Shown: positions 222-64,000 of the stretch, one piece after another
Layout: every line of letters starts with the position of its first letter
Position numbering within the stretch: the stretch's first letter is position 1
Origin: Charina bottae
Taxonomy: Eukaryota > Chordata > Lepidosauria > Squamata > Charinaidae
DNA length: 64,000 nucleotides
Reading direction: 5' to 3'
Assembly: GCA_023362775.1 (NCBI GenBank)
Contig: JALMGJ010000001.1
Coordinates: 91,080,501-91,144,500, forward strand
Translations under genes and position numbers: made by a program
The notes under the pieces: model-generated
What the model saw: the letters and a program-made list of their open reading frames with translations, nothing else
Told to the model about the DNA's origin: nothing
The model's database searches: none

Positions 222-418
222 CTGTGGCTTGAATGATGTCAACTGGATTTCTATTTTCTTAGTAGAAACGTTTCACTCCTTATCCAAGGAGCTTCTTCAG
301 TCTGAAGAAGCTCCTTGGGTAAGGAGTGAAACGTTTCTACTAAGAAAATAGAAATCCAGTTGACATGATTCAAGCCACAGACTGTTCCACCTGGATGACT
401 GAGAACCTTCATCGACAT
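222..418. mobile_element. Penelope-like family A palindrome
   Basis: Two 79-base arms (222-300 and 302-380) are reverse complements with about two mismatches, meeting at base 301. Bases 381-418 continue one side with ctgttccacctggatgact, seen inverted at 36957 and 53143. Both arms share private changes absent from other copies (agtagaaacg instead of agtggaaacg), so one arm was probably copied from the other. No coding capacity. Assignment to Penelope-like elements rests on the hammerhead-type core, the inverted layout and retroposon-style duplications of a sister copy; the element could instead be an unnamed foldback repeat. Confidence 0.7.
302..340 (+). ncRNA. hammerhead-like core (family A, right arm)
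   Basis: CTGAAGA at 302-308 fits CUGANGA. A 7-bp stem II (310-316 with 321-327, one G-T pair) leads to GAAACG at 328-333, then TT and TCT. One extra base sits between the core and stem II. The upstream AGA strand seen in other copies is lost at the palindrome centre, so this copy is probably inactive. Confidence 0.45.
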
Positions 419-5142: not shown

Positions 5143-5464
5143 AGGAGGCGCGATGGCTCAGTGGTTAAGACGCCAGGCATGTTGATTGGAAGGTTGGCGG
5201 TTCGAGACCCAAGCGCCGCGTGACGGAGTGAGCTCCCGCACTCGCCCCAGCTCTTGCCAACCTAGCAATTCGAAAGCATGCAAATGCAAGTAGATAAATA
5301 GGTACTTCGGTGGGATGGTAACAGCGTTCCACAGGCGTCATGCCAGCCACATGACTGCAGAAAAGTGTCTTCAGACAACGTTGGCTCTTTGATTAAGAAA
5401 CGGAGATGAGCACCGCCCCCTAGATTCGGACACGACTGTGCAGGGGAAAACCTTTACCTTTACC
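5143..5464 (+). mobile_element. Sauria-type SINE (BovB-tailed tRNA SINE)
   Basis: The tRNA-like head has A box ggctcagtggttaagacgcc and B box ggttcgagacc. The body follows with cgtgacggagtgagctcc and gcatgcaaatgcaagtag. The tail cggacacgactgtgcagggg then accttta repeats. Flanked by TATACAT (5136-5142 and 5465-5471). The 3' segment around CGGACACGACTG resembles the BovB 3' end at 51893, consistent with BovB-driven mobilisation known for Sauria SINEs. It sits directly beside the hAT element's duplication. Confidence 0.88.
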
Positions 5465-6612: not shown

Positions 6613-6746
6613 CAGTGTTTCTCAACTGTGGCAACTTTAAGATGTGTGGACTTCAACTCCCAAAATTCCCCAGCCAGAATGCTGGCTGGGGAATTCTGGG
6701 AACTGATGTTCACATGTCTTAAAGTTTCCATGATTGAGAAACACTG
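6613..6746. mobile_element. hAT-type palindromic MITE (CAGTGTTTCTCAAC)
   Basis: Near-palindrome with ends CAGTGTTTCTCAAC and GAGAAACACTG. The centre is a mirrored pair: ggacttcaactcccaaaatt, then ccagccagaatgctggctgg, then gaattctgggaactgatgtt. The 8-bp duplication GTCTAAAT is perfect (6605-6612 and 6747-6754). Same family at 63462 and, interrupted, at 36921. Confidence 0.9.
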
Positions 6747-11272: not shown

Positions 11273-12465
11273 GGTACCAGAAGCTTTCCACTACATGATA
11301 GAGATGTTTATGGGTCTTTTTCCAATTCTTATTGGAACAGAGGAAGTTAAAGACAAGAGTTTGTAGTTCTACAGGAATGAGCACCTTGTTGTTGAAATAC
11401 AGCTCTCAGAATCTCTTAGTATAGGTCTGGGTACCTGGATTTACTGGAAGTTGCAGTTCAGCAATGTTTGGAGGGTCACAGTTCTCCTACCTCTGAAATA
11501 GAGAACTTATTACAAGTAGGTGAATTACTGATAGTTCAGTGACCTTAAGATAGTATAATTGAGATTACATCCATCTATTAAAGCTCAAGACCTGGACACA
11601 GGAAAGTCTGGGCCTTTTTTGTGTTTTGTTTACTACTCTGAATAAAATAAACCTCATCAGCCAAAATGAAAGAGAAATGTAACTGAATTTAAAATGTTGA
11701 CTCATGTATATTGAATACTTACCAAAGTAAGGAGGCAGGGAATACATTGAACAAATCCATTTCCTTTCCTATTTGGTGTTCATGTTTACATTTGCTGGTT
11801 TGTCACAAGGAGTACTGTAGATCCAGATTGAAAAGGTGACTATTTCTTTGGCAATTTCAGGCTGTGCTTTTGTCTGATCCCATTTGAATTAATTTCTCAA
11901 GATGAATTTCATAAGGCGATCTATTAAATGCTGTAATAACATCCTGAATAAATTCCCCTTTACAATGCCATAATTTGTATGTAATCTTATAAAAAGAAAA
12001 GACTATGTCAGGCTGATTTAGGGTGCATAAACTCAACACTTTCTATTGCTTTATAGTTTTGAGGGATTTAGCTCCTGAGCCATTTTTCTCACAATATTAA
12101 TTTTTAAAAAATGGAATAGAATTCTGATTTAAAAGGAGATATTTAGTTCATCTTCTCCCAACAGCTTAATACCTATTAGTTTATCATAGATGTATGTGTT
12201 TGCTCCTGCCCACTTCTTTTTTGGAGTAGGACAGGCTACCAGGAAAAAAATCTACAAGGAATGGAAGAGGTGGTTAGCTTCTGCAAAGAAAATCTGCATT
12301 GACCTCTGAAAAACTGGGTGGCCACATCTACCTTCCAGTTCTTTTGTTATGAATGCCTTCATGACACCCTGACCAAAAACAAGGCAACCATATATTAATC
12401 TACTCAGATCACATAATTTATGTTCAATGAATCTGGCAAACCCAGGACGTTGGGTGAAACAAGTA

Positions 12466-12803
12466 GGTAAAGGTAAAGGTTCCCCCCGCACATTTGTGCA
12501 GTCGTGTCCGACTCTAGGGGCCGGTGCTCATCTCCGTTTGTTAGCCGAAGAGCCAGAGTTGTGCGAAGACACTTCCACGGTCATGTGGCCGGCATGATGC
12601 ACGCGGAACGCTGTTACCTACCCACCGAAGTGGTACCTATTCATCTACTTGCATTTGCATGCTTTCGAATTGCTAGGTTGGCAAGAGCTGGGGCTAGTGC
12701 GGGAGCTCACTCTGTCATGCGGGACTAGGGATTCGAACCTCCGAACTTGTGATCTTCCGATCGACAAGCCTGGCGTCTTACCCGCTGAGCCACCACGCCC
12801 CTT
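12466..12803 (-). mobile_element. Sauria-type SINE
   Basis: Minus-strand copy: aaaggtaaaggttcc tail, gtgtccgactctaggggccg, catttgcatgctttcgaatt, then the tRNA head ending ctgagccaccacgccc. A 12-bp duplication GTGAAACAAGTA flanks it (12454-12465, 12804-12815). Nearly full length, low divergence. Confidence 0.9.
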
Positions 12804-13587: not shown

Positions 13588-15166
13588 AGCTGCTCAAAAA
13601 AATAAAGGGAACACTGAAATAAGACATCCTAGATCTGAATGAATGAAATATTCGTATTAATTACTTTGTTCATTACATAGTTGAATGTGCTGACAACAAA
13701 ATCACACAAAAAGCAATGGAAATCAAATGTAAGCAACCCCTGGAGGTCTGAATGTGGAGTTACACTCAAAAATTAAAGTGGAAAAGAACACTACAGGCTG
13801 ATCTAAAATTGATGTAATGTCCTTAAAACAAGTCAAAATGAGGCTCAGTAGTGTGTGTGGCCTCCACGTGCCTGTATGACCTCCCTACAACGCCTGGGCA
13901 TGCTCCTGATGAGGTGGCGGATGGTCTCCTGAGGGATCTCCTCCCACACCTGGACTAAAGCATCCCCCAACTCCTGGACAGTCTGTGGTGCAACGTGGCA
14001 TTGGTGGATGGAGCGAGACATGATGTCCCAGATGTGCTCAATTGGATTCAGGTCTGGGGAACGGGCGGGCCAGTCCATAGCATCAATGCCTTCGTGTTGC
14101 AGGAACTGCTGGCACACTCCAGCCACATGAGGTCTAGCATTGTCTTGCATTAGGAGGAACCCAGGGCCAACCGCACCAGCATATGGTCTCACAAGGGGTC
14201 TGAGGATCTCATCTCGGTACCTAATGGCAGTCAGGCTACCTCTGGCGAGCACATGGAGGGCTGTGCGGCCCCCTAAAGAAATGCCACCCCACATCATTAC
14301 TGACCCACTGCCAAACCGGTCATGCTGGAGGATGTTGCAGGCAGCAGAATGTTCTCCACGGCGTCTCCAGACCCTGTCATGTCTGTCACATGTGCTCAGT
14401 GTGAACCTGCTTTCATCTGTGAAGAGCACAGGGCGCCAGTGGCGAAGTTGCCAATCTTGTGTTCTCTGGCAAATGCCAAACGTCCTGCACGGTGTTGGGC
14501 TGTAAGCACAACCCCCACCTGTGGACGTCGGGCCGTCATACCACCCTCATGGAGTCTGTTTCTGACCGTTTGAGCAGCCACACGCACATTTGTGACCCAC
14601 TGGAGGTCATTTTGCAGGGCTCTGGCAGTGCTCCTCCTGTCCCTCCTTGCACAAAGGCGGAGGTAGCGGTCCTGCTGCTGGGTTGTTGCCCTCCTACGGC
14701 CTCCTCCACGTCTCCTGATGTACTGACCTGTCTCCTGGTAGCGCCTCCATGCTCTGGACACTACGCTGACAGACACAGCAAACCTTCTTGCCACAGCTCG
14801 CATTGATGTGCCATCCTGGATGAGCTGCACTACCTGAGCCACTTGTGTGGGTTGTAGACTCCGTCTCATGCTACCACTAGAGTGGAAGCACCGCCAGCAT
14901 TCAAAAGTGACCAAACCATCAGCCAGAAAGCATAGGAACTGAGAAGTGGTCTGTGGTCACCACCTGCAGATCCACTCCTTTATTGGGGATGTCTTGCTAA
15001 CTGCCTATGCTTTCCGCCTGTTGTCTATTCCATGTGCACAACAGCATGTGAAATTGATTGTCAATCAGTGTTGCTACCTAAGTGGACAGTTTGATTTCAC
15101 AGAAGTGTGATTGACTTGGACTTACATTGTGTTGTTTCAGTGTTCCCTTTATTTTTTTGAGCAGTG
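13588..15166 (-). mobile_element. Tc1/mariner transposon (DD34E), near-complete
   Basis: Inverted ends contain TGCTCAAAAAAATAAAGGG (13591 onward) and its complement at about 15142-15163, set in TA targets (13586-13587, 15167-15168). The interior encodes one transposase on the minus strand. Length about 1.58 kb is typical of Tc1 elements. Only one clear frameshift separates it from a full ORF, suggesting fairly recent activity. Confidence 0.93.
13845..14869 (-). pseudogene. Tc1-type transposase, one frameshift
   Basis: Catalyses cut-and-paste transposition into TA. The likely start is the ATG at 14869, since [17 protein letters not shown] opens the helix-turn-helix DNA-binding region; a longer open frame runs to 14914. 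The second domain carries the DD34E catalytic set: first Asp in LFTDESRF, second Asp in MQDNARPH, Glu in DLNPIEHIWD, ending near RGGHTHY. The N and C halves are in different frames. The break lies near 14456-14461, where EHKIGN replaces the expected EH-DW context, consistent with loss of one base. All catalytic residues are still encoded. Confidence 0.92.
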
Positions 15167-22089: not shown

Positions 22090-22398
22090 CTAGCGGGAGA
22101 AAAAGGTAGAGGTCATAGCCACCTGAAACCATTTTGCTACTTGGTGAAACAGGATAGGTATCTTGGCTGTGGCAAGAAATCTCAGTCAGGAGCTGGGCCC
22201 CGGCATCTGCAATGAGAGGCCAAGCAACGCTGGGTCCCTCTTGTGTGCAGGGCTAATTCAGGGGAATTCCTGAGCTTTTCCCCATCTCAAAGCATCATAA
22301 GCCTCTGCTTCATAACTAAGGAGTCACTATTCAGTTGATGATTCTTAAACACAAGAACGAAATTAATTTCCTTGAATAGAGGTGGGGGCCTCAGGCAC

Positions 22399-22702
22399 AA
22401 TCTTTCCCCTATTTTCCTTCCTGCTTTGTCTTCTGTGCCTAGGAAGATTAAGACCATTTCACAAGCTCAACAGCAGCATGGTAATCTTAACGATCCTCCT
22501 TTAGATGATAAAGGGACTTAGAAATAACATCTCAAAAATAACCATGACCTAGCCACAGGTGCAAGGTCACACAGCCACCCTAGAAACATATTTAAGGGTT
22601 CCCTTACTAACTTTGCTCAGACTGAAGAAGCTCCTTGGATAAGGAGCGAAACGTTTCCACTGAGAAAATAGAAATCCAGTTGACATGATTCAAGCTACAG
22701 AA
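22399..22702 (+). mobile_element. Penelope-like family A, single orientation
   Basis: Runs from aatctttcccctattttcct to catgattcaagctacag and is the near reverse complement of 36957-37287. Contains the hammerhead-like core at 22622-22653. Lies in an EPHX2 intron, antisense to the gene. The far end (ccacctggatgactgagaac) is missing. Confidence 0.7.
22616..22664 (+). ncRNA. hammerhead-like core (family A)
   Basis: CAGA, then CTGAAGA (22622-22628), one extra base, perfect 7-bp stem II GCTCCTT/AAGGAGC with GGAT loop, GAAACG (22648-22653), TT, TCC. Short stem I pairs GA with TC; an outer CTCA/TGAG stem can also form. Antisense to EPHX2. Confidence 0.55.
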
Positions 22703-23463: not shown

Positions 23464-23939
23464 AGGCCAATACTACTTTTATTGTAAATATATAGTAACA
23501 GAATCTTGTAAGCCTGAATGTAATAAAAGGTTAAAATGCATAAAAGGTAAAGGTTCCCCACCCCCCACATTTGTGCAGTCGTGTCCGACTCTAGGGGCCG
23601 GTGCTCATCTCCGTTTCTTAGCCGAAGAGCCAGCGTTGTCCGAAGACGCTTCCGCGGTCATGTGGCTGGCATGACGCGCGTGGAACGTTGTTACCTTCCC
23701 ACTGAAGTGGTACCTATTCATCTACTTGCATTTGCATGCTTTCGAATTGCTAGGTTGGCAAGAGCTGGGGCTAGTGCGGGAGCTCACTCCGTCACGCGGG
23801 ACTAGGGATTTGAACCTCCGAACTTATGATCTTCCGATCGACAAGCCTGGCGTCTTACCCGCTGAGCCACCACGCCCCCCAGGCCAATACTACTTTTATT
23901 GTAAAGATATAGTAACAGAATCTTGTAAGCCTGAATGTA
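23464..23939 (-). mobile_element. Sauria-type SINE with unusually long flanking repeats
   Basis: SINE body 23542-23880 on the minus strand (tail aaaggtaaaggttcccca, head ending ccaccacgccccc). It is flanked by 59-bp direct repeats, 23464-23522 and 23881-23939, differing at one base. About 20 bases (taaaaggttaaaatgcata) lie between the left repeat and the tail. In an EPHX2 intron. Confidence 0.88.
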
Positions 23940-36421: not shown

Positions 36422-36956
36422 TAGGCCCTCCTGGAGTGCCATTCAGAACAGACTTTGCCCCCTGGCCACAATCCTCCACTTTATCCACAAGAACACCGTG
36501 TGTAATGAAACCTTGCTGGTGGTTCAGGGCATTTCCATCATTTACCAAGTCAAACTAAGGCATTTTTAAAATTATGACATAATTTGCTTTTAAACAAATG
36601 GTTAATATATTTTAAAAGAAACAAAGAAAGAAGGAAAACAAATTCTCCAGTAAACAGAATGTCAGGAACAAATTTTTCAGCCCCTAGTCTCTTTGGGCTG
36701 AGAGCGCCAATTGGCTCTAATTTCCAATTGCCTGAATGCAGCTATATCATCATTCTCTGCTCTCTGAATAATGGAGCCTTCTCTTGCAAAGCTAAATTGG
36801 ATTACTCTGTAGCCTAGTGGGGCCGTGATTCAGCGCTCAGCCTCAGCAGTATTTCTTCCTAACTCTGCAAGCTGAACTGCTGATAAGATGCGATTGTAGG
36901 AGGCATGTGATGGCTTAGATCAGTGTTTCTCTACCTTGGCAACTTTAAGATGCATG

Positions 36957-37287
36957 TCTATGAAGGTTCTCAGTCATCCAGGTGGAATTGTCTGTAGCTT
37001 GAATCATGTCAACTGGATTTCTATTTTCTCAGTGGAAACGTTTCGCTCCTTATCCAAGGAGCTTCTTCAGTCTGAGCAAAGTTAGTAAGGGAATCCTTAA
37101 ATATGTTGCTGTGTGACCTTACACCTGGGGCTAGGTCATGGTTATTTTGAGATGTTATTTTTATTTCTAAGTCCCTTTATCATCTAAAGAAGGATCGTTA
37201 AGATCACCATGCTGCTGTTGAGCTGGCGAAATGGCCTTAATCTTCCTAGGCACAGAAGACAAAGCAGGGAGGAAAATAGGGGAAAGA
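36957..37287 (-). mobile_element. Penelope-like family A, full single-orientation copy
   Basis: Begins tctatgaaggttctcagtca and ends near ggggaaaga. A 13-bp duplication TTTAAGATGCATG flanks it (36944-36956, 37288-37300) within MITE sequence. The hammerhead-like core at 37028-37076 is in the same strand as EPHX2. No ORF over 60 codons matching a retrotransposon, so it is a short non-autonomous form or a terminal-repeat unit. Confidence 0.75.
37028..37076 (-). ncRNA. hammerhead-like core, sense in EPHX2 intron
   Basis: Minus strand: CTCAGA, CTGAAGA (37064-37070), extra A, stem II GCTCCTT/AAGGAGC with GGAT loop, GAAACG (37039-37044), TT, TCCACTGAG. Stem I can pair GA/TC then CTCA/TGAG across an internal loop. 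It would be transcribed within EPHX2 pre-mRNA. Confidence 0.55.
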
Positions 37288-37350
37288 TTTAAGATGCATG
37301 GACTTCAACTCCCAGACTTGGCTGGGAAATTCTGGGAGTTGAAGACCATG

Positions 37351-37660
37351 CATATAGAACAGAACAGAACAGAACAGAAGAACAGAACAGCTTTATTGGC
37401 CAAGTATGACTAAACATACAAGGAATTTGACTTCAGTGCAAGAGCTCTCAATGTATTAACCTAACAACAAAAAAATAAACAATAATAAATTATACAATCA
37501 AGAAAAGAAAAATTAAAGAATAAATAATACTACAGCTATTTAACTAACACATACTCATATTTAAGGGAGAATTAAGGGACAACAATACTGCATCTGTTAT
37601 CTAGCATATGTTCACATATAACAGAGCATTACCGATCACGTCTTAGCAGTCATGTCTTAT
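37351..37660 (-). mobile_element. LINE 3' end with (GTTCT)n tail
   Basis: On the minus strand it ends ttggccaataaagctgttct followed by repeated GTTCT. Flanking catgcat / catacat may be a 7-bp duplication. Inserted in the MITE at 36921. The clade is not certain. Confidence 0.55.
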
Positions 37661-37950: not shown

Positions 37951-38429
37951 GACCCACAAACCCTGCATGTGCATCCTATGTTGTATTTTTTATTTTGTGA
38001 TCTAAAAGAATCTGGGTCACAAGATTCAGGCAAGCCTTATTTTAAAAGGGACAAGCTGAGCTGTTTTTTCCCCTCTTACCTGAAAGGCTCCAACAAGTCT
38101 GCTACTACCCAAATTCCTCAACTGCTTGTTACCTTAAAAGGGATAATTGCTTCAGCTAGTCTGAGCTGGGGCAGTCACATGTTACATTGATTACTATGGT
38201 GACTGATTATTTGTTATCAAGTTAATTTGTATAGAAAAGAGGTATTTTGTTTAAGCCGGCTAGTTATGCTTATCTCAACTTATTCAAATGTAAGTTTTTC
38301 TGCCTGTAGGCCTCTCTGAGGTGAAAGAGATTCCTGTAAATATGTTTTTGTTGTTTTGAATAAATGCAACTATGGCTGTTGTGGGTCTTCCGGGCTGTGT
38401 GGCCGTGTTCTGGAAGTTGTGGTTCCTAA

Positions 38430-38465
38430 CGTTTCGCTAGCATCTGTGACCAGCATCTTCAGAGG
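38430..38465 (-). ncRNA. hammerhead-like core (family B, left arm)
   Basis: Minus: CCT, CTGAAGA, T, stem II GCTGGT/GCTAGC (6 pairs with wobble), GAAACGTT, AGG. Stem I CCT/AGG is a perfect 3-bp pair flanking the core. Confidence 0.6.
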
Positions 38466-38524
38466 GCAGGAGCACAGATAGAAGCAAAATCTCTGTCTAT
38501 CTCTGCTTCTATCTGTGCTCCTGC

Positions 38525-38565
38525 CCTCTGAAGATGCTGGCCACAGATGCTGGCGAAACGTTAGG
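38525..38565 (+). ncRNA. hammerhead-like core (family B, right arm)
   Basis: CCT, CTGAAGA (38528-38534), T, stem II GCTGGC (38536-38541) with GCTGGC (38549-38554; two central G-T pairs), GAAACG (38555-38560), TT, AGG. Stem I CCT/AGG pairs fully. Confidence 0.6.
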
Positions 38566-38693
38566 AACCACAACTTCCAGAACACGGCCACACAGCCCGG
38601 AAGACCCACAACAGCCATTGAACTCCGGCCGTGAAAGCCTTCGACAATACATTAAATGCAACTATATTTTTACTGCAAAAGTTTATTTTTATT

Positions 38694-48710: not shown

Positions 48711-51700
48711 CTCCAGCAAAGGAGATCATTACCTTGTCGTGGTGCTGGAGCTTGAGCACCTCAATGAAACCATGAGCTGAACCGTGAAGGAACACCCAAG
48801 ACGGGAAGGTCGTGGCAGAGAGGTCAGACTAAATACGATCCCTGGGGAAGGTAATGGCAACCCACCCCAGTATTCTTGCCGTGAAAACTAAATGGATCAG
48901 TACAACCAGAGATATGTCGGTATACCGTCGGAAGATGGGACTCCCAGGTCAGAAGATGGTCAAAATGCTACTGGGGAGGAACAGAGGATAAGTTCAACTA
49001 GTCCCAGATGTGATGACGCAGCTAGCTCAAAGCCGAAAGGACGGCTAGTGGCCAACGGTGCTGGTGGTGAACGACGAATCCGATGTTCTAAAGATCAACA
49101 CACCACAGGAACCTGAAATGTAAGATCTATGAGCCAGGGCAAATTGGATGTGGTTATTGGTGAGATGTCAAGATTAAATATAGACATTTTAGGTGTCAGT
49201 GAACTGAAATGGACTGGGATGGGCCACTTCACATCAGATGACCACCAGATCTACTACTGTGGACAAGAGGACCACAGAAGAAATGGAGTAGCCTTCATAA
49301 TTAATAATAAAGTGGCTAAAGCAGTGCTTGGATACAATCCAAAAAACGATAGAATGATCTCAATTCGAATTCAGGGTAAGCCATTTAACATCACAGTGAT
49401 CCAAATATACGCCCCAACCACAGATGCTGAAGAAGCAGAAGTAGATCAGTTCTATGAGGATCTGCAGCACCTACTGGATAATACACCAGAAAGAGATGTT
49501 ATTTTCATTACAGGAGACTGGAATGCTAAGGTGGGAAGTCAAATGACACCTGGAATTACAGGCAAGCATGGTCTGGGAGAACAAAATGAAGCAGGACATA
49601 GGCTGATAGAATTTTGCCAAGACAACTCACTGTGCATAACAAACACTCTCTTCCAACAACCTAAAAGACGACTTTATACATGGACTTCACCAGATGGTCG
49701 ACACCGAAATCAGATTGACTACATCCTTTGCAGCCAAAGGTGGCGGACATCTATACAGTCGGTAAAAACAAGACCTGGAGCTGACTGTAGTTCAGATCAC
49801 GAACTTCTTATTGCAAAATTTAGAATCAGACTAAAGAGAATAGGGAAGACTCACAGATCAGTTAGATATGAGCTCACTAATATTCCTAAGGAATATGCAG
49901 TGGAGGTGAAGAATAGATTTAAGGGACTAGATTTAGTAGATAGGGTCCCAGAAAAACTATGGACAGAAGTTCGCAACATTGTTCAGGAGGCGGCAACAAA
50001 AAACGTCCCAAAGAAAAAGAAAACCAAGAAGGCAAGATGGCTGTCTGCTGAGACACTGGAAGTAGCCCAAGAAAGAAGGAAAGCAAAAGGCAACAGTGAT
50101 AGGGGGAGATATGCCCAATTAAATGCAAAATTCCAGAGGTTAGCCAGAAGAGATAAGGAATTATTTTTAAACAAGCAATGTGCGGAAGTGGAAGAAGACA
50201 ATAGAATAGGAAGGACAAGAGACCACTTCCAGAAAATTAGAAACATCGGAGGTAAATTCCAGGCAAAAATGGGTATGATCAAAAACAAAGATGGTAAGGA
50301 CCTAACAGAAGCAGAAGAGATCAAGAAAAGGTGGCAAGAATATACGGAAGATCTGTATAGGAAGGATAATAATATTGCAGATAGCTTTGACAGTGTGGTC
50401 AGTGAGTTAGAGCCAGACATTCAACAGTGAGGTTGAATGGGCCTTAAGAAGCATTGCTAATAACAAGGCAGCAGGAGACGACGGTATCCCAGCTGAACTG
50501 TTTAAAATCTTGCAAGATGATGCTGTTAAGGTGATGCATGCCACATGCCAGCAAATTTGGAAAACACAAGAATGGCCATCAGATTGGAAAAAAATCAACT
50601 TATATCCCCATACCAAAAAAGGGAAGCACTAAAGAATGTACAAACTATTGAACAGTGGCACTTATTTCACATGCCAGTAAGGTAATGCTCAAGATCTTGC
50701 AAGGTAGACTCCAGCAATTCATGGAGCGAGAATTGCCAGATGTACAAGCTGGGTTTAGAAAAGGCAGAGGAACTAGAGACCAAATTGCCAATATCCGCTG
50801 GATAATGGAGAAAGCCAGGGAGTTTCAGAAAAACATCTATTTCTGTTTTATTGACTATTCTAAAGCCTTTGACTGTGTGGATCATAACAAATTGTGGTAA
50901 GTTCTTGGTGGTATGGGGATACCAAGTCATCTTGTCTGCCTCCTGAGGAATCTGTATAACGACCAAGTAGCAACGGTAAGAACAGAGCACGGAACAACGG
51001 ACTGGTTTAAGACTGGGAAAGGAGTACGGCAGGGTTGTATACTCTCACCCTACCTGTACGCAGAACACATCATGCGACGTGCTGGGCTTGAGGAATCCAA
51101 GGCTGGAGTTAAAATCGCTGGAAGAAACATTAACAATCTCAGATATGCAGATGATACCACTTTGATGGCTGAAAGCGAGGAGGAGTTGAGGAGCCTTATG
51201 ACGAAGGTGAAAGAAGAAAGTGCAAAAGCTGGGTTGCAGTTAAATCTCAAAAAAACCAAGATTATGGCAACCAGCTTGATTGATAACTGGCAAATAGAGG
51301 GAGAAAAAGTGGAGGCAGTGACAGACTGTATTTCTAGGCGCAAAGATTACTGCAGACGCTGACTGCAGCCAGGAAATCAGAAGACGTCTACTTCTTGGGA
51401 GGAGAGCAATGGCAAATCTTGATAAAATAGTTAAGAGCAGAGACATCACACTGACAACAAAGGTCCGCATAGTTAAAGCAATGGTATTCCCTGTAGTAAC
51501 CTATGGCTGTGAGAGCTGGACCATAAGGAAGGCTGAGCAAAGGAAGATAGATGCTTTTGAACTGTGGTGTTGGAGGAAAATTCTGAGAGTGCCTTGGACT
51601 GCAAGAAGATCAAACCAGTCCATACTCCAGGAAATAAAGCCAGACTGCTCACTTGAGGGAATGATATTAAAGGCAAAACTGAAGTACTTTGGCCACATAA

Positions 51701-51923
51701 TGAGAAGACAGGATACCCTGGAGAAGCAGCTGATGCTAGGGAAAGTGGAAGGCAAAAGGAAGAGGGGCCGACCAAGGGCAAGATGGATGGATGATATTCT
51801 GGAGGTGACGGACTCAACCATGGGGGAGCTGGGGATGGTGACAGCCAACAGGAAGCTCTGGCGTGGGCTGGTCCATGAAGTCACGAAGAGTCGGAAGCGA
51901 CTGAACGAATAAACAACAACAAC
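48711..51923 (+). mobile_element. BovB (RTE) LINE, full length, frameshifted
   Basis: A 13-bp duplication AACCATACATTTT flanks it (48698-48710, 51924-51936). At 3.2 kb it is full BovB length, with 5' UTR, endonuclease, reverse transcriptase and a 3' end gaagagtcggaagcgactga followed by (CAA)n. It is the likely type of partner that mobilises Sauria SINEs, whose tails share the cgactg block. The ORF is broken at 50428, 50898 and about 51362-51409. Confidence 0.95.
49129..51912 (+). pseudogene. BovB ORF: endonuclease intact, reverse transcriptase broken
   Basis: 49129-50430 is open for 433 codons: AP endonuclease motifs NIDILGVSELKWTGMG, QIYAPTTDAEEAEVDQF, FITGDWNAKVGSQ, TWTSPDGRHRNQIDYILC and CSSDHELL. 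A frame change at 50428 leads to NKAAGDDGIPAELF. The next part (50655-51362) carries QAGFRKGRGTRDQI, FIDYSKAFDCVDHNKLW-stop, VRQGCILSPYLY and the catalytic YADDT at about 51145. The end (51409-51912) has YGCESWTIRKAEQRKID and DALELWCWRKILRV-like sequence. At least three lesions; non-autonomous now. Confidence 0.95.
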
Positions 51924-52711: not shown

Positions 52712-52870
52712 GAGTTTGGTGGATACTGTGGAGTTCTTGATGCTCTCTGAGCTTGGTAGTTTGCTTGCAGACGTTTCATTACCTGACTAGGTCACATCAT
52801 CAGTGCTCAGTGGATACTTCCCATGTTACTGATCATCCCCCAAAGGCCTATACATGCTCCTTATCACAAC
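52712..52870 (-). mobile_element. Penelope-like family C fragment
   Basis: ttgatgctctctgagcttgg, gtttgcttgcagacgtttca, ttacctgactaggtcacatc, atcagtgctcagtggatact: a family common in reptiles and other amniotes. Single orientation. Carries the best hammerhead-like core in the window on its minus strand. Ends are not sharply defined. Confidence 0.65.
52767..52806 (-). ncRNA. hammerhead-like core (family C, canonical CUGAUGA)
   Basis: Minus strand: GCA, CTGATGA (52797-52803), stem II around ACCT/AGGT, GAAACGTC (52770-52777), TGC. Stem I GCA/TGC pairs fully, core residues are canonical, and the cleavage triplet would be GTC, the preferred one. One mismatch in stem II. Confidence 0.65.
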
Positions 52871-53142
52871 ACAAATAAATGGTCCATATTTGTGCCAGCA
52901 TTTGCCTCTGACTCTAAAATTAGAGTTCTTAAGGTTCAAATTAATGGAAAATGAATAAATTGTGCTAGGCTAAACTTGGAGAATATAGGACCAAGAGAAG
53001 CATCAAATCTGAACCTTCCTTTTCATATCTGCCATACCTCAATCCACTTCTGACTCCTTCAATGGACCAAGTGCCTCCTCTGCCACCACCAAAGGCTACC
53101 TACGCTAGTCCACAATCAGATTTTTAAAAATACAGGAAGTAT

Positions 53143-53378
53143 GTCTATGAAGGTTCTCAGTCATCCAGGTGGAATTGTCTGTAGCTTGAATCATGTCAAC
53201 TGGATTTCTATTTTCTCAGTGGAAACGTTTCAGTCCTTATCCAAGGAGCTTCTTCAGTCTGAGCAAAGTTAGTAAGGGAATACTAACTTTGCTCAGACTG
53301 AAGAAGCTCCTTGGATAAGGACTGAAACGTTTCCACTGAGAAAATAGAAATCCAGTTGACATGATTCAAGCTACAGAC
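53143..53378. mobile_element. Penelope-like family A palindrome with 17-bp duplication
   Basis: Left arm gtctatgaaggttctcagtc...cagtctgagcaaagttagta; right arm actaactttgctcagactga...attcaagctacagac. The 17-bp duplication AAAAATACAGGAAGTAT (53126-53142, 53379-53395) is perfect. Both arms share cagtcc/ggactg where other copies have cgctcc/ggagcg, so stem II of the hammerhead-like core is weakened identically on both sides. Confidence 0.82.
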
Positions 53379-53395
53379 AAAAATACAGGAAGTAT

Positions 53396-63400: not shown

Positions 63401-64000
63401 TAGCCACAGGCAGTTCCCATACCAGCTTCTACTGATATGCATCAGCTCCAACCTTTTACAACAGTGTTTCTCAACCTTGGCAGCTTGAAGGTGTGTGGAC
63501 TTCAACTCCCAGAATTCCCCAGCCAGCATGTCTGGCTGGGGAATTCTGGGAGTTGAAGTCCACACACCTTCAAGCTGCCAAGGTAGAGAAATGCTGCTTT
63601 ATGGTCTTGGAGACAGTTACTCATACCCTCATCACCCTGAGCCTGTGTTACCACAACACACTTTACTCTACTACCCAGAAACTACAGTTGGTGCAGAATG
63701 CAGCAGTCCATTTGCTGGTGGGTAAGAGCTGCTTCAGTGATTTGATGCTGGTTTTGTGAGCATTGTACCAGTTATCAATAAAGTTATGGATATTTTTTTT
63801 AATCAAAAAGTAAAGTAAAATTCAAAGTGTCAGTTTTAACCTGTGAAGCCTTACATGGCTTGGGTCCCACTTACCTCTGGGGCTGCTCCTTCAAACTGAA
63901 TCTGTCTGTCTTTCTCGCCAGGACGTGGGTATGTAGTGAGACCAGAAACAGGCCTTATCAGTTACAGAAAAGCCTCCCCCCAAGAGGTCAGATCAGCCCC
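63401..64000 (+). pseudogene. L2-type LINE fragment, interrupted by MITE
   Basis: ccataccagcttctactgat and, after the MITE, ggtcttggagacagttactc give LETVTHTLITLSLCYHNTLY then QLVQNAAVHLLVG. From 63835 the text resumes cctgtgaagccttacatggc, ttgggtcccacttacct. Matches the L2 C-terminal region with stops. It runs off the window. Confidence 0.7.
63462..63596. mobile_element. hAT-type palindromic MITE (CAGTGTTTCTCAAC)
   Basis: CAGTGTTTCTCAACC left end, near-perfect palindrome through gacttcaactcccagaattc and its complement, right end GGTAGAGAAATGCTG. Flanks ttttacaa and ctttatgg match only partly, so the duplication is uncertain. Sits inside the L2 fragment. Confidence 0.85.

What the first reader, a model, noticed from the sequence alone, without database searches (positions are those of the whole stretch)
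22616..22664. Three unrelated repeat families share one RNA design with different but pairing stem I
Seen: family A pairs AGA with TCY, B pairs CCT with AGG, C pairs GCA with TGC, each around CUGANGA ... GAAACGU. The sequences outside are unrelated. The core and spacing are conserved (A and B both have one extra base after CUGANGA) while stems change, as selection on RNA structure would leave. In A and B the N7 position is A.
Basis: partly seen in the sequence, partly recalled or inferred. Interest (0 to 1): 0.78.

Follow-up and report, generated by a model that had tools for sequence, protein, structure and literature searches.

The report
Minimal hammerhead ribozymes in Penelope-like retroelements
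Three kinds of jumping gene in an animal genome each carry the same tiny RNA-cutting motif with different but matching stems, an arrangement already described for Penelope-like elements; many copies also show a regular pattern in how these elements insert.

Summary
The motif is real: nine CTGANGA...GAAACGTH units (families A, B, C) in the window against 0.025 in Markov sequences. All three are Penelope-like elements (PLEs). In the same genome A follows a frame with reverse transcriptase and GIY-YIG domains, B a 474-codon open frame, C PLE fragments; the finding's own copy keeps that frame's end. Stems I and II covary between families. This is the stem-III-less hammerhead already described for PLEs; one in Anolis cuts RNA with protein help. 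Copies of A show no clear excess conservation of the core (13 of 359 cells against 75 of 1266, p 0.11), as dead copies would.

Beyond the finding: 57 of 60 head-to-head A and B pairs have one short and one long tail about 35 nt apart, none two alike, fitting one use of each of two published reverse-transcription start sites. A copies starting exactly at the predicted cut are in excess (losses 467 against 106 and 201 at neighbouring bases), but 15 of 40 inspected are point changes and 13 are microhomology joints. RNA cutting was not measured. New members of a known kind.

The parts
22616..22664 (+). A2: minimal hammerhead unit (stem I, CUGAAGA, extra A, stem II GCUCCUU/AAGGAGC, GAAA, CGU, H17 = U, stem I)
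22371..22699 (+). A2 insertion: 5'-truncated PLE piece = end of ORF, 3' region, pLTR with hammerhead, short tail; ends and imperfect TSD (GAAATTAATTT / GAAATTAAAAT) read by eye
   Evidence: (8-bp exact repeat)
22372..22521 (+). Last 49 codons and stop of the PLE open frame (LNRGGGLRHNLSPIFLPALSSVPRK...DDKGT), one residue different from L011
223..418 (.). A1: head-to-head inverted pair of A tails, units 267-300(-) and 302-335(+), left tail short, right long; 13-bp direct repeat TTTGCTAATGCTC at 210-222 and 419-431
36957..37287 (-). A3: single A insertion, unit 37037-37070, long tail, 13-bp direct repeat TTTAAGATGCATG at 36944-36956 and 37288-37300
53143..53378 (.). A4: head-to-head inverted pair, units 53224-53257(-) and 53298-53331(+), left tail long, right short; 17-bp direct repeat at 53126-53142 and 53379-53395
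38374..38652 (.). B: head-to-head inverted pair, units 38428-38462(-) and 38528-38562(+), left tail short, right long; 13-bp direct repeat TAAATGCAACTAT at 38361-38373 and 38653-38665
52770..52803 (-). C: single hammerhead unit CUGAUGA, extra U, degenerate stem II, GAAA CGU C, stem I GCA/UGC; no TSD found

Best explanation
Families A, B and C are insertions of three different Penelope-like retroelements. Each has, where its pseudo-LTR meets the open frame, a minimal type I hammerhead: stem I, CUGANGA, one unpaired base, stem II, GAAA, and CGUH with no stem-III loop. As established for such ribozymes, stem III can form only when two copies pair through the palindrome ACGU or when a protein holds the fold; the RNA would then be cut after H17. 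The elements insert by target-primed reverse transcription starting at one of two sites about 35 nt apart downstream of the ribozyme, leaving a target duplication of mostly 12-15 bp and often two head-to-head copies. Shown here: the motif, covariation, linkage to RT and GIY-YIG, direct repeats at the ends, the two fixed tail ends. Inferred: RNA cutting, the dimer or protein-assisted fold, and its role in the cycle.
For: Motif against null: 9 against 0.025. Covariation on 10 units: 92.9% of cells paired against 66.6% shuffled, 19 cells changed on both sides against 6.4, score 0.778 against 0.296 (0 of 500 shuffles each) and at most 0.117 when slid. PLE linkage: A, L011 408-codon frame with PF01541 2.9e-7 and PF00078 1.3e-6 (28.7 bits, cut-off 29.6), an A unit (with GAAATG) 98 nt after its stop, and the window's own copy. 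B, a 474-codon open frame with the same ends in the 4 loci with an RT peptide (of 30 B loci), ending about 75 nt before the unit, RVT_1 2e-11, 36% identity to A's RT and EN. C, L010 with RT-like and GIY-YIG pieces then a C-type unit; L045 with an EN peptide 449 nt upstream (1 of 30 C loci). Copies within 3 mismatches: A 52,525, B 15,630, C 10,020, reversed controls 0. GAAACGT is read in different frames in B (GAA ACG T) and C (AAA CGT). Direct repeats of 13-17 bp at 4 of 6 window insertions. Prior art: PMC7761336, PMC6155905 (passages), PMC11167929 (main text).
Against: No Rfam hammerhead family matches, even weakly. In the covariation count two measures are not exceptional: pairs with a change on both sides 5 against 3.6 (74 of 500 shuffles) and further pair types 10 against 8.4 (89 of 500). 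The extra base after A9 departs from the hammerhead consensus as I recall it; some insertions elsewhere in the core lower activity (PMC3088659, passages). Stem I is 2 of 3 pairs in most A units. Copies of A show no significant excess conservation of the core. Cofolding two copies forms the GAAACGUUUC helix for A but not for B or C. B's GIY-YIG was not found by Pfam at E up to 0.1. No activity was measured.
Confidence: 0.9

Rival explanations
1. The shared core is common descent: the three families inherited the motif from one ancestral PLE and it is not under selection as RNA now.
For: All three are PLEs. No significant excess conservation among A copies.
Against: The DNA around the units has diverged beyond BLASTN recognition while 13 core letters are kept and the stems changed on both sides; neutral drift would have erased the core too.
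Confidence: 0.05
2. The conserved letters serve as the start of the PLE open frame (codon or protein constraint), not as RNA.
For: In B and C an ATG overlaps A9 and the frame runs through the motif; the Anolis PAc frame also starts there (PMC11167929).
Against: GAAACGT lies in different frames in B and C; A has no ATG there and its frames from CTGA close within 17 codons in 20 of 20 units; stem covariation is not explained.
Confidence: 0.03
3. The units are non-autonomous retrozymes (short tandem hammerhead repeats moved by PLEs) rather than PLE ends.
For: Many copies lack coding sequence; metazoan retrozymes carry type I hammerheads, many with weak stem III (PMC7761336, passages).
Against: Window A2 and L011 keep the PLE frame in place; 4 B loci have a long open frame at one fixed spacing; neighbours within 600 bp in the listed places are head-to-head in 40 of 40 cases, not tandem.
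Confidence: 0.04

Closest known systems
Minimal (stem-III-less) hammerhead ribozymes of Penelope-like elements (Cervera and De la Pena 2014; Lunse, Weinberg and Breaker 2017; neither held; known here from passages of PMC7761336 and PMC6155905 and from recall)
   Same: Type I core, no helix III nucleotides, in PLE pseudo-LTRs, thousands of copies, proposed to act as dimers.
   Different: All three families here carry one extra base between A9 and stem II; I could not check whether the published consensus has it.
PAc, Poseidon of Anolis carolinensis (PMC11167929, main text read)
   Same: Hammerhead at the pLTR-ORF junction, RT plus GIY-YIG, reverse transcription mostly starting 111-118 nt into the ORF and two start sites bounding the 'tail'. 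In B and C the long tail ends about 119 and 107-109 nt from the A of the ATG (B; C by eye).
   Different: Its letters are in a figure that is not held, so sequence identity with C or B was not tested.
Penelope families of Adineta vaga (PMC3846280, passages)
   Same: Direct plus inverted pLTRs, 31-bp optional tail on one inverted pLTR, TSDs of 8-10 bp in the passages seen, mostly head-to-head.
   Different: Direct repeats here are mostly 12-15 bp; the word hammerhead does not occur in that paper.

Membership tests
Minimal PLE hammerhead | Conserved core C3 U4 G5 A6 N7 G8 A9 ... G12 A13 A14 A15.1 ... U16.1 H17 | tested here: met
   9 window units, found by this pattern, so met by construction; the null gives 0.025. 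Numbering recalled
Minimal PLE hammerhead | Stem II and stem I supported by covariation, helix III without nucleotides of its own | tested here: met
   (3 families, 2 sub-variants; two of five measures not exceptional); GAAACGUH leaves no loop
Minimal PLE hammerhead | A9 directly followed by stem II (canonical hammerhead, recalled) | tested here: not met
   one extra base in A, B and C; whether the published PLE consensus has it is not known here
Minimal PLE hammerhead | Self-cleavage as dimer or with protein | not testable with these tools
   cofolding pairs two A units through GAAACGUUUC, not B or C; no activity data
Rfam hammerhead families | Score against the covariance models | tested here: not met
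   no hammerhead hit at E up to 5 in the window or up to 10 in three short stretches
Penelope-like element | RT and GIY-YIG beside the repeat | tested here: met
   A. B: RT, EN by alignment to A only. C: fragments in L010 and L045
Penelope-like element | pLTR, inverted pLTR, optional tail of 30-40 bp, TSD | tested here: met
   (A and B; C by eye only)
Metazoan retrozyme | 150-300 bp tandem hammerhead repeats without coding sequence | tested here: not met

The most novel reading that the evidence does not exclude
A PLE inserts by copying the same RNA twice, once from each of two start sites about 35 nt apart, one cDNA on each side of a staggered cut, so that a head-to-head insertion has one short and one long tail; and the hammerhead cuts the RNA in the animal, so that some template RNAs, and hence some insertions, begin exactly at the predicted cut.
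Probability: 0.3. Interest if true: 0.65.

Novelty: new member of a known kind. Interest (0 to 1): 0.4.

Why it matters
The ribozyme in PLEs is known but its activity and role in the animal are called a mystery (PMC7761336). A genome with about 78,000 copies of three families, one with a long open frame in the four loci read, lets two questions be tested by sequence: whether cut RNA is used as template, and how two start sites are shared between two DNA strands. The one-short-one-long rule argues against models in which the two arms start independently.

Tried and rejected
Rfam: no hammerhead. Viral collection: 0 matches for A, B and C patterns. The Pfam GIY-YIG search of the genome scored 150 of 3765 candidates and returned 4: L011 and L010 are used above; L009 showed no hammerhead-like motif; L012 has a C-type endonuclease peptide but only an A inverted pair, and no C unit was seen. 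Two-RNA dimer model for the inverted pairs: arms of one pair share variants more than arms of different pairs (A 16 pairs P 0.0034, B 29 pairs P 0.0002) and have similar 5' extents (A Spearman 0.75, p 0.0009; B 0.30, p 0.11; median difference P 0.0004 and 0.011), which favours one RNA or one source. Simple fold-back copying would explain that but not the short/long rule. No covariance model, structure prediction or database protein search was run. A B-family replicate of the cut-site count was asked five times and never answered.

Rows dropped or not measured: two of 35 fetched A/B pair loci (L101, L104) were not returned by the script's length and distance filter, and pairs further apart than 700 bp were not used. 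In one search some fetched flanks were short: 8 of 15 pairs show a direct repeat of 10 bp or more, 4 show none. C pairs were read by eye only: L108 one short and one long; L071 two long tails, about 290 bp apart, no target duplication seen.

Full report
The observation. The window holds nine units of the form CTGANGA, 18-20 nt, GAAACGTH: six of family A, two of B, one of C. First-order Markov sequences of the same length hold 0.025 on average (200 trials), and none with stem II of at least four contiguous pairs and two stem-I pairs; six of the nine window units pass that test, the two units at 53224-53331 and the C unit fail on stem II. BLASTN of the three families' surroundings finds no match between families. 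Stem I pairs fully in B and C; in A the third pair is A.C in four of six units, and one more (302-335) is cut short by a palindromic joint. All three families, not two, have one extra base after CUGANGA.

Stems. On ten units (six from the window, four from the same genome) 92.9% of cells pair and the covariation score is 0.778 against 0.296 for shuffles (0 of 500 reach it) and at most 0.117 for slid versions. Five of seven pairs have changes on both sides, but that count and the number of pair types are not exceptional (74 and 89 of 500 shuffles reach them). Only the outer four pairs of stem II were counted because the alignment has a gap further in. A C-type unit beside PLE coding pieces (L010) has GTTGCC/GGCAAT where other C units have GTTACC/GGTAAT, a compensated change.

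What the families are. Family A: locus L011 has a 408-codon frame with RT (PF00078, 1.3e-6, just under its cut-off) and GIY-YIG (PF01541, 2.9e-7), and an A unit, with GAAATG for GAAACG, begins 98 nt after its stop. The finding's own copy keeps the last 49 codons of that frame, one residue different, and its stop at 22372-22521. Family B: 4 of 30 B loci (L019, L029, L030, L032) have an RT peptide upstream; in all four an open frame of 474 codons, running off the locus at its 5' side, stops about 75 nt before the unit. RT is clear (2e-11), and GIY-YIG is seen by alignment to A's protein, 36% over 364 columns, not by Pfam. Family C: L010 has RT-like and GIY-YIG pieces in several frames followed by a C-type unit, and L045 has an endonuclease peptide 449 nt upstream; the other 29 C loci showed no such peptide. 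B and C proteins are 35% identical over 186 columns. Copies within three mismatches number 52,525, 15,630 and 10,020; the reversed patterns give none.

How it works. The layout is that of a type I hammerhead without a helix III of its own: A15.1-C and G-U16.1 meet with no loop, so helix III needs a second copy (ACGU is its own complement) or a protein. Cofolding pairs two A units through GAAACGUUUC; for B and C the best cofold is another. In B and C an ATG overlaps A9 and the frame runs on through the ribozyme; in A it does not. In PAc of Anolis the ORF likewise begins at stem II (PMC11167929, main text read); there the ribozyme cut RNA only with the protein present, cutting was not needed for insertion in vitro, and no RNA read was found to begin or end at the cut. 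GAAACGT is read as GAA-ACG in B and as AAA-CGT in C, so protein coding does not explain its conservation. Cutting itself is inferred, not shown, for A, B and C.

Decay. In 35 tail-anchored A rows, core cells other than the CpG differ in 13 of 359, stems, loop and flanks in 75 of 1266 (p 0.11); the CpG differs in 7 of 62, N7 and the extra base in 1 of 29 each. A few rows are misaligned at palindromic joints and were kept.

Insertion pattern. Four of six window insertions have exact direct repeats of 13-17 bp at their ends; A2 has an imperfect one by eye and C none. Among the first 100 listed perfect places each of A and B, neighbours within 600 bp are head-to-head in 15 of 15 and 25 of 25 cases; between 600 and 4000 bp they are so in 8 of 10 and 4 of 5. 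With short defined as 50-70 nt and long as 85 or more nt from GAAACG, 42 of 45 pairs have one short and one long tail; none has two of a kind; three have an end elsewhere (L086 at 71 nt, one base past the bin; L099; L100). A second set of 15 A pairs, chosen by the tail and not by the ribozyme, gives 15 of 15. The two ends are about 35 nt apart in A and B, and about 36 in C by eye; of two C pairs, one follows the rule and one has two long tails but no target duplication seen. PMC3846280 (passages) already states that a 31-bp tail is optionally present on one of the inverted pLTRs, and PMC11167929 links the tail to two RT start sites. The strict one-of-each rule I did not see in the papers and passages that I could open (searches; most of their listings were not opened). 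Arms of one pair share variants and tend to reach similar 5' extents (weaker in B), so the simplest reading is one RNA copied twice, once from each site.

Trace of cutting. Exact genome counts for A, extended base by base across the predicted cut, are 46,624, 46,518, 46,051 and 45,850: losses of 106, 467 and 201, the largest exactly between H17 and the next base. Only these three steps were counted. The 467 were recovered directly. Of the first 40 listed, 15 keep the ribozyme and are point changes or small insertions, 25 lack it; several of the 40 are the two arms of one pair. By eye 13 of the 25 join an inverted arm through shared TCC, GTC or GTCT (7 of them the same joint), so their true start is uncertain; the other 12, one joined to what looks like U6 RNA (recalled, not searched), share less. 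Among 81 tail-anchored arms read directly, 5 start 10-12 nt from the anchor, where the cut lies at 10, of 16 that start within 45 nt. This is a hint that cut RNA serves as template, not proof, and the B replicate did not complete.

Known or new. Reviews say that minimal type I hammerheads lacking helix III occur in thousands of copies in animal genomes, in PLE pseudo-LTRs, and may act as dimers (PMC7761336, PMC6155905; passages). The two primary papers are not held. The finding is therefore a sound rediscovery with three families in one genome; whether these three families have been named before was not checked.

Noticed in passing
223-418, 38374-38652, 53143-53378 and 57 further pairs in the same genome: Head-to-head inverted PLE insertions have exactly one short and one long tail in 57 of 60 A and B pairs measured.
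   Followed up: yes
family A copies, boundary after H17: Excess of copies that start at the first base after the predicted cut (losses of 467 against 106 and 201 at neighbouring bases), partly point changes and microhomology joints.
   Followed up: partly
L019, L029, L030, L032: Family B PLE has an open frame of at least 474 codons in the 4 loci read, which suggests recent activity.
   Followed up: partly
L210 (C1:38294987-38295087): A 5' end of family A joined to what looks like the 5' part of U6 snRNA (by recall, not searched), as a template switch would leave.
   Followed up: no
49117-51912: Long + strand open frames that look like a non-LTR retrotransposon with endonuclease and RT (by eye).
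   Followed up: no
23543-23878, with similar stretches at 12469-12801 and 5144-5438: Repeat of about 335 bp, 85-94% alike, that looks like a tRNA-derived SINE (by eye).
   Followed up: no
63488-63570, 6639-6720, 37291-37356 (both strands), 11386-11467 (+): Palindromic repeats matching Rfam mir-5408 below its gathering score.
   Followed up: no
13845-14956: Reverse-strand frames resembling a Tc1/mariner-like transposase (by eye).
   Followed up: no
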